34,779 nt of DNA from an uncultured Lachnospiraceae bacterium (GTDB lineage: Bacteria > Bacillota > Clostridia > Lachnospirales > Lachnospiraceae), in contig CANQRU010000038.1 in NCBI GenBank assembly GCA_947626395.1, forward strand, positions 1 to 34,779. The letters run 5' to 3'. The notes beneath the pieces were generated by a model that saw only the letters and a list, made by a program, of their open reading frames with translations, made no database searches and was not told the origin of the DNA. This document shows positions 24,728 through 30,661 of this stretch, one piece after another. The translations under genes and the position numbers were made by a program. Positions within the stretch are counted from its first letter, which is position 1, and each line of letters starts with the position of its first letter.

Positions 24728-26065
24728 ATGAAAGCGCAGAATTACAGAGAGGAGCTGGAGCAGATGCGCGGAGATCTGAACCGCGCCGGCTTCGGCAGCT
24801 TCCTGATCATTCCGTTAAAATATGAAGCGGGAAATGCAGATACAGCCTGGCTTCAGGAGAACTGTGAAAGACAGCCGATCTCCACGATGGATATGAATGA
24901 AGCCGTCAAGGATAATCTCAATTCTGACGATGGCATCCGAATCCTCGAACGCTATTATATATCGGGCAAAGTTCTGGAAAAGATCCTGTTCGGGGACACA
25001 GATGGGAAACCGGTCAGGCTGTACGTCTGCGAGCAGGATGAGCAGCCTGATGAATCCGCGGAGCAGAAGAGTCATTTTGAACTGTTTTCGGCGTATTTCT
25101 ATCTCTTTCATACGCAGACGGCGTTCCTCTGTCTCGGGATCACGTATTCCGATATCGCTGTTCTGGAGCGCATTTGCAATCTGGGATATGCGGACAGCCG
25201 CGCTGCCTATTACTGCCGGGATGGCAGCGGACTGCATGAATTCTCTCTTGATGATAAACTGAGGGAGCTTTGCGCCCTGGCAGGACTGGAATGTTTCTTT
25301 CAGGCAGGCTCCTCGCTTTTCCTGGAGAGTTATACCTACACGCTGGCGGTTGTCCCCAGACGTTTCCGCTATCTGGAAAGCGTCCGCCGGCTCACGTTCA
25401 ATCTGCATCAGATGCTCCCGCTGGGGACAGAGATGGATGACGATTCGGAAGGAGACATCCACTATGTCTACTCGGTGAAATCGCAGGAGCTTGACAGCTA
25501 TCGTTGGGGCTGCTGCGTAACCTCCCAGACGATCTGCTATGTGGTTGCGGACGAGACGCTGAATCTGGAAAAAGAACTTTGCAGCCAGGCGGAAGACGGG
25601 CTCCCGGTCGTGCTTCTCGCCCTCTATGAGAAATACAGCTGCCTGCGGTTCACACAGCTTCTGGTCACTGTGGATAAGCGAAAGCTGCGCCTTTTGCGCA
25701 GGCTGAACCGGCAGATGCTGGAATTCCGCGCCTACGGCACGGTCCATCCCAGTCATATTTCCCGCTGGTACAATGTAAGGCAGATCTATCAGTACCTGAT
25801 CGAGACGAACGGCATCGATCAGGCCATAGAAGACGTAAATAACAAGCTGGGTGTTCTGGCCGAACACCAGAAGGAAGTGGAGGCCAGTACAAACGAGGCT
25901 GTGATGGGCCTGATCACGCTTTTCGGTATTGTCTCCATCCTCGCTTCGCTGCTGACCATTATCCAGATCCTGCAGGGCGGCGATTACTGGATGATTACGA
26001 TTATCGCGCTGCTGCTGATCGTCGTCGGCGCGGCGGCGGTAGCGCTCTGGCGCAGCCGGGAGTAG
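24728..26065 (+). CDS. Membrane protein with CorA-like topology, unknown function
   Basis: A 445-residue protein of a family I do not recognise. The long N-terminal part (1-330) is soluble and mixed alpha/beta. A probable coiled coil at about 355-390 (INGIDQAIEDVNNKLGVLAEHQKEVE-type helix) leads into two C-terminal membrane helices, at about 391-415 and 420-441. This is the topology of CorA metal transporters, which also have a large cytosolic domain, a stalk helix and two terminal helices. The diagnostic GMN motif between the helices is absent; the loop reads LQGGDYW. Ion transport is therefore not assured. ATG with GGGAGGAAA upstream. Base composition is intermediate between purL and the A/T-rich genes that follow. 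Confidence 0.75.
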   Translation: MKAQNYREELEQMRGDLNRAGFGSFLIIPLKYEAGNADTAWLQENCERQPISTMDMNEAVKDNLNSDDGIRILERYYISGKVLEKILFGDTDGKPVRLYVCEQDEQPDESAEQKSHFELFSAYFYLFHTQTAFLCLGITYSDIAVLERICNLGYADSRAAYYCRDGSGLHEFSLDDKLRELCALAGLECFFQAGSSLFLESYTYTLAVVPRRFRYLESVRRLTFNLHQMLPLGTEMDDDSEGDIHYVYSVKSQELDSYRWGCCVTSQTICYVVADETLNLEKELCSQAEDGLPVVLLALYEKYSCLRFTQLLVTVDKRKLRLLRRLNRQMLEFRAYGTVHPSHISRWYNVRQIYQYLIETNGIDQAIEDVNNKLGVLAEHQKEVEASTNEAVMGLITLFGIVSILASLLTIIQILQGGDYWMITIIALLLIVVGAAAVALWRSRE

Positions 26066-26367: not shown

Positions 26368-26396
26368 TTGTAAAGTCAGAGCGATAGCGGTATAAT
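26368..26396 (+). promoter_or_regulatory. Sigma-A promoter of the ExbB/ExbD-like operon
   Basis: TTGTAA (26368-26373), 17-bp spacer, TATAAT (26391-26396), 45 bp before the first ATG. Confidence 0.8.
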
Positions 26397-26441
26397 CAAG
26401 CTATCAGAATGACAGATCAAAGAGCACAAAGGAGATCAGCT

Positions 26442-26999
26442 ATGAATTTCTTATTACAGTTTATTGCTCAATATGCTACGGAAGGTATTTTTTTGGCTGG
26501 AATAGTGACCGCTATTTTACTGGTTGGAAATGGACTGCAGTTGTCGAGTAAAAAAAGCAGGATCGCAGATGCTCTGGAACAGAAGAACAAAAAGTACACC
26601 TATATCAATAATTTTAAGGATTTTGAGGAGACGGAGGAGGATGATGAAAAGACCAGAACCAAGCCAGATGCGATCAGAGAATATGAGAACGAGTTTAATA
26701 AAGTATGTTCCTGGCATAACGTATGGATACAGTTCATCCCCATCTTCCCATTATTAGGTATCTTGGGAACGGTTGCCGGATTGATGCTGGAACTGCAGTC
26801 CAACGATATAGCCGGAATGATGTCCTCTCTTGATGTTGCGATGGGAACCACAGTTCTGGGATTAGTTTTTGCGATTATTCTTAAGTTTGTTGAAGCAATT
26901 TTTCCGTCAAGAATCATTTATGAAGTGGAAGTTATGCTGAACAATTATGACAAAAAGCGGAGTCTTGCGGAATTATCTCAGAATATACAGAATCAATAG
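26442..26999 (+). CDS. MotA/TolQ/ExbB-like proton-channel protein
   Basis: A 185-residue protein with the three-helix layout of TolQ/ExbB: one N-terminal helix (about 13-31), a cytosolic segment with a charged Glu/Asp/Lys stretch, and two helices at about 97-117 and 130-152. The second pair carries the family signature FPLLGILGTVAGLMLEL and LDVAMGTTVLGLVFAIILKF, including the Thr pair (136-137) that lines the proton path. These proteins form a pentamer around a dimer of a TolR/ExbD partner and convert proton flow to movement. ATG at 26442 is chosen over 26409 for its AAAGGAG site at 26428-26434. First gene of an operon of at least five genes. Confidence 0.88.
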   Translation: MNFLLQFIAQYATEGIFLAGIVTAILLVGNGLQLSSKKSRIADALEQKNKKYTYINNFKDFEETEEDDEKTRTKPDAIREYENEFNKVCSWHNVWIQFIPIFPLLGILGTVAGLMLELQSNDIAGMMSSLDVAMGTTVLGLVFAIILKFVEAIFPSRIIYEVEVMLNNYDKKRSLAELSQNIQNQ

Positions 27000-27013
27000 G
27001 GAGCGCTTGACAA

Positions 27014-27550
27014 ATGCTGAGAAAAGGAAGAAGGTTTCAGAACGATATTGTGATTGATCTGACGTCTTTGCTGGATGTCATATTCATCATATTACTTATC
27101 CTGGTATGTGGTCAGACTACCATTGGCGACGATCTGAATGAGGCGCAGATTCAGGCCGAATACGCTAGGACACAGGCTGAGGCAGAGAGACAGTTATACG
27201 AAGAACAGCAGAGGGCATTTGCCAGTGTACTGGCTGTTTCAGTCGTTGTCCCCTACGATGAAAATGAGATCACCAGGAGACAGATCCGCCTTCTGAAACA
27301 AGGGGATGAGATCCAGTCGATCGACCTTATCGGGAATGATATTTCGGATCCCGTGAATGAGTTTAAAGAGATCCTGGCAGATTATATCGAACAGAATAAG
27401 GAAAGGCCGACGATCCTTTCTGTGAATGAAAATGACGATCATATTTTGTATAGGGACGAGGTCATGGTCAATCGTATATTTGACGAGTTGGTGCAGACAT
27501 ACGACAATGTTTATATTGTGAAGGGAAATACAGACGAGGAGACGAAATGA
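27014..27550 (+). CDS. ExbD/TolR-like protein (motor partner)
   Basis: A 178-residue protein. The single N-terminal membrane helix contains the hallmark IDLTSLLDVIFIILLILV (14-31), in which Asp21 occupies the place of the essential protonatable Asp of ExbD and TolR. A Gln/Glu-rich helical linker (about 40-75) leads to an exported domain (80-172) whose end, PTILSVNENDDHILYRDEVM then a helix, matches the TolR/ExbD periplasmic fold. Partner of the preceding channel protein, 14 bp downstream. It lacks the OmpA-like peptidoglycan-binding domain found in MotB or ZorB. Its stop overlaps the next start by 4 bp, so translation is coupled. Confidence 0.86.
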   Translation: MLRKGRRFQNDIVIDLTSLLDVIFIILLILVCGQTTIGDDLNEAQIQAEYARTQAEAERQLYEEQQRAFASVLAVSVVVPYDENEITRRQIRLLKQGDEIQSIDLIGNDISDPVNEFKEILADYIEQNKERPTILSVNENDDHILYRDEVMVNRIFDELVQTYDNVYIVKGNTDEETK

Positions 27551-28131
27551 TACCTTGGATTCTGATCATTGTAGGTGCAGCTATGACGCTTATCGGTGCG
27601 GTTGGCTTAGTGCGCCTGTATATTTGTCTTCCAATCAAAGAAAAATTTAGAATTGTGTATGACCGGGATAAAGAGTTTATTCAGGCAAGACTGAATCCGA
27701 AGCTGCAGGATTTTGTTAATTATAATGCAGAGCAGTTACGAACTAAATTTATGAGCCTGCTGCTGTTCGGACTGCTAATCTTTCTGGCGGGCTATTATCT
27801 CGGTTATGCCGCGGAGGGAGAGGGTTTCTGGCTTTATCAAAAGTTTTTTCCGCAGGCCTCGGCTAGTCAGGTGTGGGATGAATTGAACGAAAAAGGACAG
27901 TTTGTCTCGGAATCCGGGAAAGCGTATACATATTATATTGTCATTTCTGGGAAGGAGATCGCTTTGCGTGGAGAACCATGCGCCGACTATAATGATCTGA
28001 AAGAGAAGCTGTCACAGATCAAAAAGGAAAACACAGTCATGGTGATCGATAGCTTTGCGGTGTCTTCCTCATATCATTCTGTGGAAAATATACTGAACGA
28101 ACTTGGATTATCCTATGAGGAAACACGATGA
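27547..28131 (+). CDS. Two-helix membrane protein with a TolR-like C-terminal domain
   Basis: A 194-residue protein. Helix 1 spans about 3-26 and helix 2 about 69-88, with a basic loop between them. After the second helix, residues 126-192 (YTYYIVISGKEIALRGEPC ... ENTVMVIDSFAVSSSYHSVENILNEL) have the strand-helix-strand-helix order of an ExbD/TolR exported domain: two short strands, a small helix, a strand ending in a hydrophobic pair, and a final helix. I infer this from pattern, not from a search. It lacks the membrane Asp of TolR. It overlaps both neighbours by 4 bp (ATGA), so it is made in step with them and is likely a subunit of the same complex. Confidence 0.7.
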   Translation: MIPWILIIVGAAMTLIGAVGLVRLYICLPIKEKFRIVYDRDKEFIQARLNPKLQDFVNYNAEQLRTKFMSLLLFGLLIFLAGYYLGYAAEGEGFWLYQKFFPQASASQVWDELNEKGQFVSESGKAYTYYIVISGKEIALRGEPCADYNDLKEKLSQIKKENTVMVIDSFAVSSSYHSVENILNELGLSYEETR

Positions 28132-28598
28132 AGAAAAAATATTGGGCTGCGCTCATGCTGCTTTGTTCCCTGGTATTTCTGGTGGGCTGGGGCAAGAAAA
28201 AGGTGGAACTGTTAAACGATAAAAAACTCATCGATCTGAATGCGGCTATCGAAAGATGCATTCCGGGAGCAAATGCACCGGAACGGCCTGAAAACGAAGC
28301 TTCTGCTTCTGACGATTCTTTGGAGGAGACGCTGGCGCAGGCAGTGCCGGCAGAAGCTCATTCGGTCGAAGAGACGGAAAGGATTGTCATTATCAAGGTA
28401 AGAGATCAGACGGTTACCTATGACGCGGAAACGTATACAGACCTGAGTAAACTCGAAGCAAGAATCAGACAGGACAACGGGGAACACGTATCATTCCGGC
28501 TGGTGGACGATTTCGCGGAGGCGCATGTATACAAAGAGGTATTGTCAATTCTTGGCGATCTGGAGGCAGAGATCGGGCTGAATTGTACGAAAGAGTAG
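28128..28598 (+). CDS. Exported or anchored protein with a TolR-like domain
   Basis: A 156-residue protein with an N-terminal hydrophobic segment (5-21) acting as signal or anchor; no good lipobox is present. Residues 40-82 are acidic and probably flexible. Residues 84-152 (ERIVIIKVRDQTVTYDAETY ... VSFRLVDDFAEAHVYKEVLSILGDLEAEIGL) again follow the order of a TolR/ExbD exported domain, including the final 'strand, D-x-x-A, x-Y, helix' part. It has no membrane Asp. The start overlaps the preceding stop by 4 bp. If correct, the operon supplies three versions of this fold. Confidence 0.65.
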   Translation: MKKKYWAALMLLCSLVFLVGWGKKKVELLNDKKLIDLNAAIERCIPGANAPERPENEASASDDSLEETLAQAVPAEAHSVEETERIVIIKVRDQTVTYDAETYTDLSKLEARIRQDNGEHVSFRLVDDFAEAHVYKEVLSILGDLEAEIGLNCTKE

Positions 28599-28610
28599 GA
28601 GAGCCGTGTT

Positions 28611-29597
28611 ATGAACAAAAGGAAACTGTTGATCGCGATCACAGCGCTTGGTGTATGGATTACCCTATGCGGAGCAGGGTGGTTTAATCGTACCAAAGTG
28701 GTGATTGATACGGAGAATAATCGGGTATATCAGTACTGCACAGTCGATACGCTGATCTCTGCATTTATGCAGGACAGCAAAGCAGCCAGGAATACATATC
28801 AGGGCACTATGCTTCTCCTGACGGGAAAGGTGTCCGGGATCGGTAAAAACAATAAGGATCTTGAACTGACAGGCCTCACGTTGTCGGAGACTACTGTGAA
28901 GTGTTCATATAGCAAAGAACTGCGAACAGCGGTATCTGCATACCGCGAGGGAGACAACATTGCGTTGTACGGGAAGATCACGGTGGATGCGATCGATAAA
29001 GATATTCATCTGAAAACGGAAAAAATAGTGGATTCATCTTCTGTGACCGCCTCCGGCGATATGTTTTATCAGCTGGACGGATCCTCTTTTGACAAGCGAA
29101 CTGCCAGTAAGGTCACACTGCATAACGGCGATATCGAGTATTATATCCCGGCTTCCTGGGCTGACAGGGATATCCAATTTAATATTGTGGATGAAAAACT
29201 GGGCACCATGGAAGGGTACCAGTACAGACTTAATCGACTGGGTATGAACGATTCAGTTCCGGAATCTTTGTTTATATGTTATTTTGATAATCAGAAGCAG
29301 CTTGCTGATTACCTGAATGATTCGGATGAAACGGAACTGATCGAAAAAGCGATCGTCGAGAACATTCTAGGCGATGTGGGCTCGTTCCCATCCAAAGAAG
29401 TAGACACCTATTATGATAGCGAATACGACTATTATCTGGGATCGTATAAGACAGTCTTTGATACGGGAATGGGTTATCATACAGAATTTGTATTTCAAAA
29501 AGCCGAAGAAGGCATTGTTGTGATGATCTATGTTTACAAGGAAACAAAACATTTATCGGATGTGATGTTTGTTACAAGATTTCTGGAGGTAAAGTAG
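28611..29597 (+). CDS. Exported protein with probable OB-fold (tRNA_anti-like) domain
   Basis: A 328-residue protein. The N-terminal segment, LLIAITALGVWITLCGAGW, is a signal or anchor; a cysteine at 20 lies in a poor lipobox. Residues of about 45-135 (QGTMLLLTGKVSGIGK ... AYREGDNIALYGKITVDAI) resemble the exported tRNA_anti-like OB fold that occurs in small lipoproteins. The remaining 190 residues are beta-rich, acidic and aromatic (YYDSEYDYYLG), with no match I can name. Shares an AGWFNRTKVV-type sequence after the signal with the preceding gene's GWGKKKVELL. It is 12 bp downstream of its neighbour, so it is in the same operon. Confidence 0.7.
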   Translation: MNKRKLLIAITALGVWITLCGAGWFNRTKVVIDTENNRVYQYCTVDTLISAFMQDSKAARNTYQGTMLLLTGKVSGIGKNNKDLELTGLTLSETTVKCSYSKELRTAVSAYREGDNIALYGKITVDAIDKDIHLKTEKIVDSSSVTASGDMFYQLDGSSFDKRTASKVTLHNGDIEYYIPASWADRDIQFNIVDEKLGTMEGYQYRLNRLGMNDSVPESLFICYFDNQKQLADYLNDSDETELIEKAIVENILGDVGSFPSKEVDTYYDSEYDYYLGSYKTVFDTGMGYHTEFVFQKAEEGIVVMIYVYKETKHLSDVMFVTRFLEVK

Positions 29598-29692
29598 AGG
29601 GAGACGATGCTGCCTTTTCTTTCATAATGCGGAAATAACTATTGAACCTCACACTTTCAAGAAGAGGTAAACATTCCTAGAGGGAGGACAAG

Positions 29693-29908
29693 ATGATTGA
29701 ACTGTTGATCGCTCTGGTGGTGCTGACCGGTCTGTTCTGGATTGGATATCATGTAACCGGAGCTTTATTATCGGCGGCAATATGGCTGTGTATTAAGCTG
29801 CCATTTGCAATTTTCCTCTGCGGTTTAGGATTGGTGTGCTGTGTTACTATTTTTTTAATTCCATTGGGAGGAAAATGCTTTAAGTTTGCGTTTGAAGTTC
29901 TTACATAA
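29693..29908 (+). CDS. Small hydrophobic membrane protein
   Basis: A 71-residue protein of two to three hydrophobic segments (about 3-20, 22-36 and 40-58). GGGAGGACAAG lies just before the ATG. No family recognised. It ends the A/T-rich plus-strand operon and precedes its terminator, so it may be a small accessory subunit. The 95-bp gap before it holds no promoter that I can support. Confidence 0.6.
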   Translation: MIELLIALVVLTGLFWIGYHVTGALLSAAIWLCIKLPFAIFLCGLGLVCCVTIFLIPLGGKCFKFAFEVLT

Positions 29909-29950
29909 AGGTAAATCTGTCAATCGAGAGAGTTTTACAGAATGTTAAAA

Positions 29951-29980
29951 GGGTGCCGCGAATTTGCGGCATCCTTATTT
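29951..29980 (+). terminator. Terminator of the motor operon
   Basis: GGGTGCCGC pairs with GCGGCATCC (one G·U), loop GAATTT, followed by TTATTT. Confidence 0.8.
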
Positions 29981-30030: not shown

Positions 30031-30315
30031 TCAGAACAGATCGCTGTGCGTCCCTGTACGGGATAGAGTCAACACCAGCACATCGTCCTCGATGCGGTAG
30101 ATCAATAACCAATTCGGTAAGATATGACATTCCCTGTGCCCGGCCCAGTTTCCGGTCAGAGGATGGTCTTTATTCTTGTCCGGAAGTATTTCGCCCATAG
30201 CTAGGGCAGCAACAACATCTTCCAGTAGGCTGATTTTTAATCCGCGTTTTATTGCCAGCTTGTAATCTTTTTTAAATTGTGCGGTGGACTTGACAGTGTA
30301 CTTTGTTTTTCTCAT
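30031..30315 (-). CDS. YafQ-family type II toxin (mRNA interferase)
   Basis: A 94-residue RelE-superfamily toxin. The family cleaves mRNA on the ribosome. Landmarks are DHPLTGNWAGHRECH (His51 and His64), PNWLLIY (Trp69), and RTGTHSDLF at the C-terminus (His90, Phe94), which align to the catalytic residues of E. coli YafQ. The Asp before Trp in E. coli (Asp67) is Asn68 here. The start overlaps the antitoxin stop by 4 bp. It lies convergent to the motor operon, past that operon's terminator. Confidence 0.9.
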   Translation of the reverse strand: MRKTKYTVKSTAQFKKDYKLAIKRGLKISLLEDVVAALAMGEILPDKNKDHPLTGNWAGHRECHILPNWLLIYRIEDDVLVLTLSRTGTHSDLF

Positions 30316-30590
30316 TTTTTCAGGTCAGCAAACAACTCGTCGAGATCGGTGTAGCCTTTCACGGACGGGTCTTTTGCAATCCTTTCCGCTTCCAACATGG
30401 CGGCAATCGTTTCATTGTTAGGCGTGTTCAGGGAGATATCAAAAGGAATTCGGCCCTCACGAAGCGACTGACGGACAAAAATGTTAAAAGCAGTGGACAG
30501 ATTCATGCCCAGCTCTGCAAAAAGGGCATCGGCCTCTGCCTTCAGATCGGAATCAATGCGGATACTGATATTGGTTGTAGTGCTAGCCAT
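30312..30590 (-). CDS. RelB/DinJ-family antitoxin
   Basis: A 92-residue antitoxin. It begins ASTTTNISIRIDSDLKAEAD, the ribbon-helix-helix DNA-binding part, followed by the GMNLSTAFNIFVRQSLREGR helix typical of DinJ; the acidic C-terminus (YTDLDELFADLKK) binds the toxin. ATG at 30590 is chosen since the minus strand reads AAAGGAGATGATTGT before it; longer readings to 30659 are A/T-rich and lack a site. It is expected to repress its own promoter at 30621-30649. Confidence 0.9.
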   Translation of the reverse strand: MASTTTNISIRIDSDLKAEADALFAELGMNLSTAFNIFVRQSLREGRIPFDISLNTPNNETIAAMLEAERIAKDPSVKGYTDLDELFADLKK

Positions 30591-30620
30591 ACAATCATCT
30601 CCTTTCTTGCTGGTGATTAT

Positions 30621-30649
30621 AGTATAATACAACTGCACGAAAAATGCAA
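30621..30649 (-). promoter_or_regulatory. Promoter of the toxin-antitoxin operon
   Basis: On the minus strand, TTGCAT (30644-30649), 17-bp spacer, TATACT (30621-30626). Near consensus. Confidence 0.7.
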
Positions 30650-30661
30650 TACTCTGCACGA
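30633..30661. promoter_or_regulatory. Direct-repeat operator candidate for the antitoxin
   Basis: CTGCACGAA occurs at 30633-30641 and 30654-30662, that is 21 bp apart, two helical turns. Both copies flank or overlap the promoter hexamers, so a ribbon-helix-helix repressor could bind them on the same face. Confidence 0.5.

What the first reader, a model, noticed from the sequence alone, without database searches (positions are those of the whole stretch)
26368..29908. ExbB/ExbD-type proton motor operon with unknown exported partners in a monoderm
Seen: a three-helix TolQ/ExbB-like protein with its Thr-containing signature, then a TolR/ExbD-like protein with Asp21 in IDLTSLLDVIF, then three exported or membrane proteins of unknown function and a small hydrophobic protein, with 4-bp overlaps between genes 2-4 and a shared consensus promoter and terminator. 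Known: TolQR and ExbBD power outer-membrane work in diderms, and ZorAB, a related motor, serves phage defence. Inference: in an organism without an outer membrane this motor must drive something else, such as cell-wall, secretion or defence work.
Basis: partly seen in the sequence, partly recalled or inferred. Interest (0 to 1): 0.82.

Follow-up and report, generated by a model that had tools for sequence, protein, structure and literature searches.

The report
Membrane motor without an outer membrane
A bacterium of the Lachnospiraceae, a group thought to have a single membrane, carries a five-gene set that looks like the proton-driven motor other bacteria use to power their outer membrane, rebuilt with extra copies of part of one motor protein and a new secreted partner, so it may push or pull on something in the cell wall or at the cell surface.

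Summary
Gene A (26442-26999) is a MotA/TolQ/ExbB-family protein (PF01618, E 5.7e-12). Gene B (27014-27550) is ExbD/TolR-like: below Pfam's cut-off on its own, but 10 of 10 aligned family members hit PF02472, and Asp21 is present in 19 of 19 loci. C probably carries an ExbD/TolR-type outer domain (AlphaFold model; ExbD and TolR are the five best VIA matches) and D a homologous one, without the membrane aspartate. E is exported: OB fold plus PsbP/LpqN-like domain. A-B-C-D-E keeps its order in all 19 loci found (18 genomes of one family). A shorter form (A, B, one or two such domains) occurs at 11 further places. The window genome has no Omp85, OmpA or TonB_C match; A is its only MotA_ExbB protein. 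Best reading: a proton-driven 5:2 motor adapted to a single-membrane envelope, with D (perhaps C) in the place of TonB/TolA and E as load or adaptor. Assembly and proton use are inferred; the load is unknown; defence finds no support. New variant of a known kind.

The parts
26368..26396 (+). sigma-70-type promoter-like site TTGTAA-17-TATAAT
   Evidence: consensus scan, 10 of 12; consensus match only
26442..26999 (+). gene A: three-helix MotA/TolQ/ExbB-family channel subunit, 185 aa
   Evidence: PF01618 E 5.7e-12; profile of 9 A proteins hits MotA E 9.6e-9, ExbB 2e-6, TolQ 1.8e-4 in PDB; conserved Thr 18 of 18
27014..27550 (+). gene B: ExbD/TolR-like axle, 1 TM with Asp21 in DLTSLLDV, 178 aa
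   Evidence: 10 of 10 aligned members hit PF02472, best 1.2e-5, window protein itself below the cut-off; Asp21 19 of 19; profile lays its TM on TolR and ExbD TM in PDB at E 0.49-8.1
27547..28131 (+). gene C: 2 TM plus C-terminal ExbD/TolR-fold domain (about residues 123-194), no Asp/Glu in the TM segments
28128..28598 (+). gene D: N-terminal anchor, linker, C-terminal domain homologous to that of C
   Evidence: hhalign of the C and D families 98.2%, E 3.1e-14 over 68 columns
28611..29597 (+). gene E: exported protein, OB fold (about 34-141) plus PsbP/LpqN/Tsi3-like domain (about 165-328)
29693..29908 (+). F: small hydrophobic ORF, optional neighbour, probably not a core part
   Evidence: a comparable ORF in 3 of 19 loci
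29949..29976 (+). terminator-like hairpin
   Evidence: -20.6 kcal/mol, z -5.1, 0 of 200 shuffles as good; not listed by the terminator scan

Best explanation
The operon encodes a proton-driven 5:2 motor of the ExbBD/TolQR type, re-engineered for a single-membrane envelope. Five copies of A are expected to form the channel wheel around a B dimer whose Asp21 carries the proton (inferred from homology and invariant residues). Instead of TonB, TolA or Pal, the partners are C and D, membrane-anchored proteins with ExbD-type outer domains but no proton-carrying Asp, and E, an exported OB-fold plus PsbP/LpqN-like protein. D has TonB-like layout (anchor, conserved stretch just outside the membrane, linker, small head), so I propose that D, perhaps with C, takes the force from B's outer domain and passes it via E to a target in the cell wall or at the surface. 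Shown: gene families, order, conservation, joint inheritance, predicted folds of C and E, lack of outer-membrane markers. Inferred: 5:2 assembly, proton use, force transfer. Unknown: the load.
For: A and B family matches; invariant Asp and Thr; five-gene order in 19 of 19 loci at 16-80% identity to the window proteins; distances of the five proteins correlate at r 0.87-0.96 in all 10 pairs over 17 loci, 0 of 2000 permutations each (this shows joint inheritance, not contact); ExbD fold of C; C and D domains homologous; the same domain beside A and B at 11 further places; E folds; no Omp85, OmpA or TonB_C match and no second MotA_ExbB protein in the genome.
Against: B's own Pfam score is below the cut-off. 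B's outer domain was not modelled, and hhalign finds no link between B and the C or D family (probability 0.4% and 1.0%). Foldseek alone gave no significant PDB match for C (best E 0.22); the ExbD assignment rests on the VIA second look and on weak Pfam hits (PF02472 in 4 of 26 members of the C/D/third set, best E 0.0068, while several unrelated families reach better E-values in one or two members); a PDB sequence search with that set found no ExbD. No complex was modelled. No load is identified, and neighbours other than AIM24 (7 of 19 loci) vary.
Confidence: 0.6

Rival explanations
1. A Zorya-like phage-defence motor: A and B would sense envelope perturbation by a phage and fire an effector.
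For: Weak ZorA similarity of the channel segment (E 2e-4 in PADLOC; 0.0011 in NCBIfam); patchy occurrence (2 of 26 species of the genus); low G+C (0.437 against 0.564 in the rest of the window); toxin-antitoxin-type genes in some neighbourhoods (RelB 3 and PIN_3 3 of 118 neighbours).
Against: A is 185 aa, without the long tail of ZorA models (383-699 positions); no OmpA-domain match in the genome; no cytosolic effector in the conserved unit; C, D and E are anchored or exported; no defence family in more than 5 of 118 neighbours among the 25 of 114 families shown. No match for E in plasmids, for B in phages, or for the E and B profiles in viral contigs; E in phages and B in plasmids were not searched.
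Confidence: 0.1
2. A motor for export or handling of secreted proteins or surface polymers, with E as chaperone on the outer face.
Against: No secretion-channel gene was seen to recur beside the operon (the last shows 25 of 119 families); PsbP/Mog1-type folds serve many purposes (recalled).
Confidence: 0.2
3. A pmf or wall-integrity sensor: A and B conduct or gate protons, and C, D and E report wall contact rather than do work.
For: AIM24-family gene beside A in 7 of 19 loci; vWA, macro and protein-kinase neighbours in single loci.
Against: No kinase or transcription factor is part of the conserved unit; these neighbours are not constant.
Confidence: 0.12
4. A decaying relic of a Ton or Tol system.
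For: A 2025 survey calls Ton systems occasionally seen in monoderms, Clostridia included, likely non-functional (PMC12204202, passages).
Against: Purifying selection on all five genes, Asp and Thr kept, order intact in 19 loci, no TonB_C in the genome, partners that are not part of Ton or Tol.
Confidence: 0.03

Closest known systems
ExbB-ExbD-TonB (Ton system)
   Same: ExbB-family channel subunit, ExbD-like axle with TM Asp, an anchored partner with a conserved stretch just outside the membrane (D here; the D-box of TonB in PMC10907165, passages seen)
   Different: no TonB C-terminal domain in the genome, no outer-membrane marker; two extra ExbD-fold proteins without Asp; an exported OB plus PsbP-like protein
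TolQ-TolR-TolA-TolB-Pal
   Same: TolQ/TolR-like pair
   Different: no OmpA-type (Pal) domain in the genome; no TolA or TolB in the operon (TolA and TolB were not sought genome-wide)
MotAB flagellar stator
   Same: A's profile has MotA as its best PDB match
   Different: no OmpA-type domain (MotB) in the genome; no other MotA_ExbB protein
ZorAB (Zorya defence)
   Same: distant channel homology
   Different: no long ZorA tail, no OmpA-type domain, no PADLOC match for B-F
AglRQS gliding motor (recalled, no call)
   Same: one TolQ-like and more than one TolR-like protein
   Different: AglQ and AglS are recalled to keep the TM Asp; C and D here do not have one

Membership tests
MotA/TolQ/ExbB channel family (PF01618) | score above Pfam gathering cut-off | tested here: met
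   45.9 against 22.9 bits
MotA/TolQ/ExbB channel family (PF01618) | conserved Thr in the last two helices | tested here: met
   both Thr invariant in 18 of 18
ExbD/TolR family (PF02472) | score of B above Pfam gathering cut-off | tested here: not met
   16.6 against 25.4 bits for the window protein; 10 of 10 aligned members hit at E up to 1, best 1.2e-5. B is therefore called ExbD-like, not filed as a PF02472 member
ExbD/TolR family (PF02472) | single TM with proton-carrying Asp | tested here: met
   Asp21 19 of 19, one TM segment in 19 of 19; that it carries protons was not testable
ExbD/TolR family (PF02472) | ExbD-fold outer domain in B | not tested
ExbD/TolR outer-domain fold (genes C, D) | structural match to ExbD/TolR | tested here: met
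ExbD/TolR outer-domain fold (genes C, D) | Asp in the TM segment, as in full ExbD/TolR | tested here: not met
   no D or E in the TM segments of 19 C proteins; in D, acidic residues only in the last four positions of the 19-residue segment (6 of the 16 D proteins with a segment over threshold; window, L031 and L032 had none)
Ton system | TonB C-terminal domain in the genome | tested here: not met
   PF03544 no match; control rings in 3 of 14 genomes
Tol-Pal or MotAB | OmpA-type wall-binding domain in the genome | tested here: not met
   PF00691 no match; control rings in 5 of 14, Bacillus subtilis among them
Zorya | ZorA/ZorB model match | tested here: not met
   only partial ZorA hits, E 2e-4 and worse; none for B-F
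5:2 rotary motor | pentamer and dimer stoichiometry, pmf dependence | not testable with these tools
   no complex modelling or experiment available

The most novel reading that the evidence does not exclude
A third kind of force-transducing partner for a proton motor: instead of TonB or TolA, an anchored protein (D; the third protein of the short form) whose head is itself an ExbD-type domain stripped of the proton Asp, so that the motor's axle and its transducer arose from one fold by duplication and the machine does mechanical work on a single-membrane cell wall or surface.
Probability: 0.35. Interest if true: 0.82.

Novelty: new variant of a known kind. Interest (0 to 1): 0.64.

Why it matters
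ExbBD-type motors are thought of as outer-membrane machines; [quoted passage not shown] This is a small, intact and conserved unit in a genome that shows no Omp85 or TonB_C match and has no other MotA_ExbB protein, so 'what does such a motor do without an outer membrane' becomes directly testable by deletion or by one point change (Asp21).

Tried and rejected
Defence: PADLOC scans of the six operon proteins and the 445-aa upstream protein and of 118 neighbours gave generic matches (mad3 in 5, mad8 in 4, AriA in 3, PD-T4-6 in 2 of 118); the output shows 25 of 114 families, so rarer ones were not seen.

Mobile element: no match of E in plasmids, of B in phages, or of the E and B profiles in viral contigs. 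The low G+C of the operon (0.437 against 0.564) suggests transfer, but the operon is poorer in G+C than its flanks in 16 of 17 loci compared, so part of this is intrinsic.

B and C/D as recognisable sequence homologues: hhalign negative. PDB sequence search with the C/D/third-protein profile gave no ExbD. PDB search with the B profile: 6 of 7 hits are TolR or ExbD, but at E 0.49-8.1 and below an unrelated protein at 0.17. The A profile's list also holds a colicin Ib at 3.5e-4, which marks the noise level.

Restriction to one family: the E profile hits 4 of 398 genomes drawn from the phylum, the three besides the window only over the OB part, and 16 of 295 drawn from the order, of which only the window, G568 and G556 (all of the window's family) match over the full length; the B profile hits 2 of 299, the other at E 9.8e-4. 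Samples, not a census.

Upstream gene 24728-26065: no homologue in the loci fetched by then, so not counted as a part. F: not a core member.

Print: listings of searches (3 of 3 papers; 15 of 16; 10 of 633; 5 of 5; 10 of 64; 10 of 1,116; 0; 6 of 88) showed no paper on this operon; the library holds open-licence papers only. From six papers I saw passages, none whole.

Full report
Observation. A (26442-26999) matches PF01618 at 45.9 bits. B (27014-27550) matches PF02472 only below the curated cut-off (16.6 against 25.4 bits), but all 10 members of the B alignment hit it at E up to 1, best 1.2e-5. A profile of these 10 lays the membrane segment on that of TolR and ExbD in the PDB, at E 0.49-8.1 and behind an unrelated hit at 0.17. 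A profile of nine A proteins finds MotA (9.6e-9), ExbB (2e-6), TolQ (1.8e-4) and, last of 19 rows, ZorA (0.14); a colicin at 3.5e-4 marks the noise. The promoter-like site, hairpin and 4-bp overlaps are as stated.

Relatives. A single-sequence search found A-like proteins in 28 of 299 genomes of the family, 30 places with the window's own. Classified by profiles: the window and 7 others carry A-B-C-D-E (the window's short locus L001 shows A, B and C; the rest is), 11 carry A, B and one or two proteins with the C/D-type domain, 1 (L026) has A and B with the flank cut, and 10 have no B by profile, seven of them scanned with flanks of 1.5 kb or less. In 10 of the 11 short forms the extra protein is found by the C or D profile, built without it; the profile named 'third' was built from 8 of the 11 and is circular for those. 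Further searches brought the five-gene set to 19 loci in 18 genomes; the two of G111 are identical in DNA, so 18 distinct arrays. All 19 keep the order A-B-C-D-E (the A of L033 is cut by a contig end). Identity to the window proteins runs from 80% down to 16-24%. The three named records are titled uncultured Lachnospiraceae; the others are listed as the window's own family. E at 1e-12 or better occurs in 12 of 397 sampled genomes of the family, all 13 places within complete arrays, and in 2 of 26 species of the genus, the window's included: an accessory unit, kept together.

Envelope. The window genome (98.5% complete) has no match to Omp85 (control rings in 7 of 14 genomes), TonB_C (3 of 14) or OmpA (5 of 14, Bacillus subtilis among them, so this last speaks against MotB and Pal rather than against an outer membrane). 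A is its only MotA_ExbB protein. That Lachnospiraceae are monoderm is recalled knowledge.

Mechanism. By homology, A5 and B2 would form a proton-driven wheel and axle. In the Ton system the ExbD dimer binds a short, mostly alternating hydrophobic stretch of TonB just outside the membrane, the D-box (PMC10907165, passages seen), and touches the wall (PMC10771500, passages). D has a conserved stretch at the same place, [LIMF][IV]x[LF] in 19 of 19 rows (LIDL at that place in 10), preceded in most by a V.L-like tract, then a linker and a small head, so D is laid out like TonB with an ExbD-type head. This likeness is my reading and untested. E would be the load, or the adaptor to it; in L092 E lacks the OB part, so the second domain may be the one that counts.

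Context. AIM24 (PF01987) is the one recurrent neighbour seen: 7 of 118 scanned neighbours (which does not name them), by sequence one in each of 7 loci, directly upstream of A in six and divergent in L040 (two confirmed singly). Six of the seven fall in one weakly supported group (0.55) together with L092, beside which none was seen; L040 branches by itself. The window genome has two AIM24 proteins elsewhere. Macro and vWA genes at L034, a kinase at L037 and DUF58 and transglutaminase genes at L070 occur singly.

Literature. Passages only were read. A review states that ExbBD is considered a Gram-negative property and that a role in Gram-positives remains to be tested (PMC9389320); a survey reports occasional Ton systems in monoderms as likely non-functional (PMC12204202); a classification of MotAB and its relatives names proteins of unknown function among the generic ion transporters (PMC12505986); a review of Ton and Tol motors was seen in passages too (PMC12905483). 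None of the passages describes this operon.

Verdict. A real, conserved, proton-motor-like operon with unusual partners; the motor part is well supported, the transducer role of D plausible, the load unknown.

Noticed in passing
window 30031-30659, minus strand: Two overlapping small genes that read like a RelB/DinJ-type antitoxin and a YafQ/RelE-type toxin (resemblance recalled; RelB hit 3 of 118 neighbours without naming which). L031 and L032 have toxin-antitoxin-like genes beside the same operon, on different sides.
   Followed up: partly
window 24728-26065: 445-aa protein with hydrophobic C-terminal segments, weakly CorA-like (PADLOC CorA E 8.8e-8), no homologue in the loci compared.
   Followed up: partly
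L035 and L036 (G111 contigs C37 and C63): One genome carries two DNA-identical copies (3361 bases) of the five-gene array, with the same 168-aa and 574-aa flanking genes, on two contigs: recent duplication or an assembly effect.
   Followed up: partly
L049 (G193 contig C63) 4584-6927: A 471-aa MotA/ZorA-like protein (A profile E 7e-9) next to a 304-aa protein that reads MotB-like (recalled), a different motor type, in a genome that also has the five-gene array.
   Followed up: no
L033 1317-1799: D of this relative has a lipobox-like LAGC where the close relatives have W or F in place of the Cys, suggesting D is or was a lipoprotein in some lineages.
   Followed up: no
L092 9015-9737: E of this locus is only 240 aa and lacks the OB part while keeping the PsbP/LpqN-like domain (profile match 134-327).
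   Followed up: no
L039, L040, L041, L071, L090, L091, L093: AIM24-family gene directly beside gene A in 7 of 19 loci; searches listed no paper on a bacterial role of AIM24, and this link may help to place it.
   Followed up: partly
L019, L044: In two short-form loci the Asp-less ExbD-fold gene lies upstream of A instead of downstream of B.
   Followed up: no
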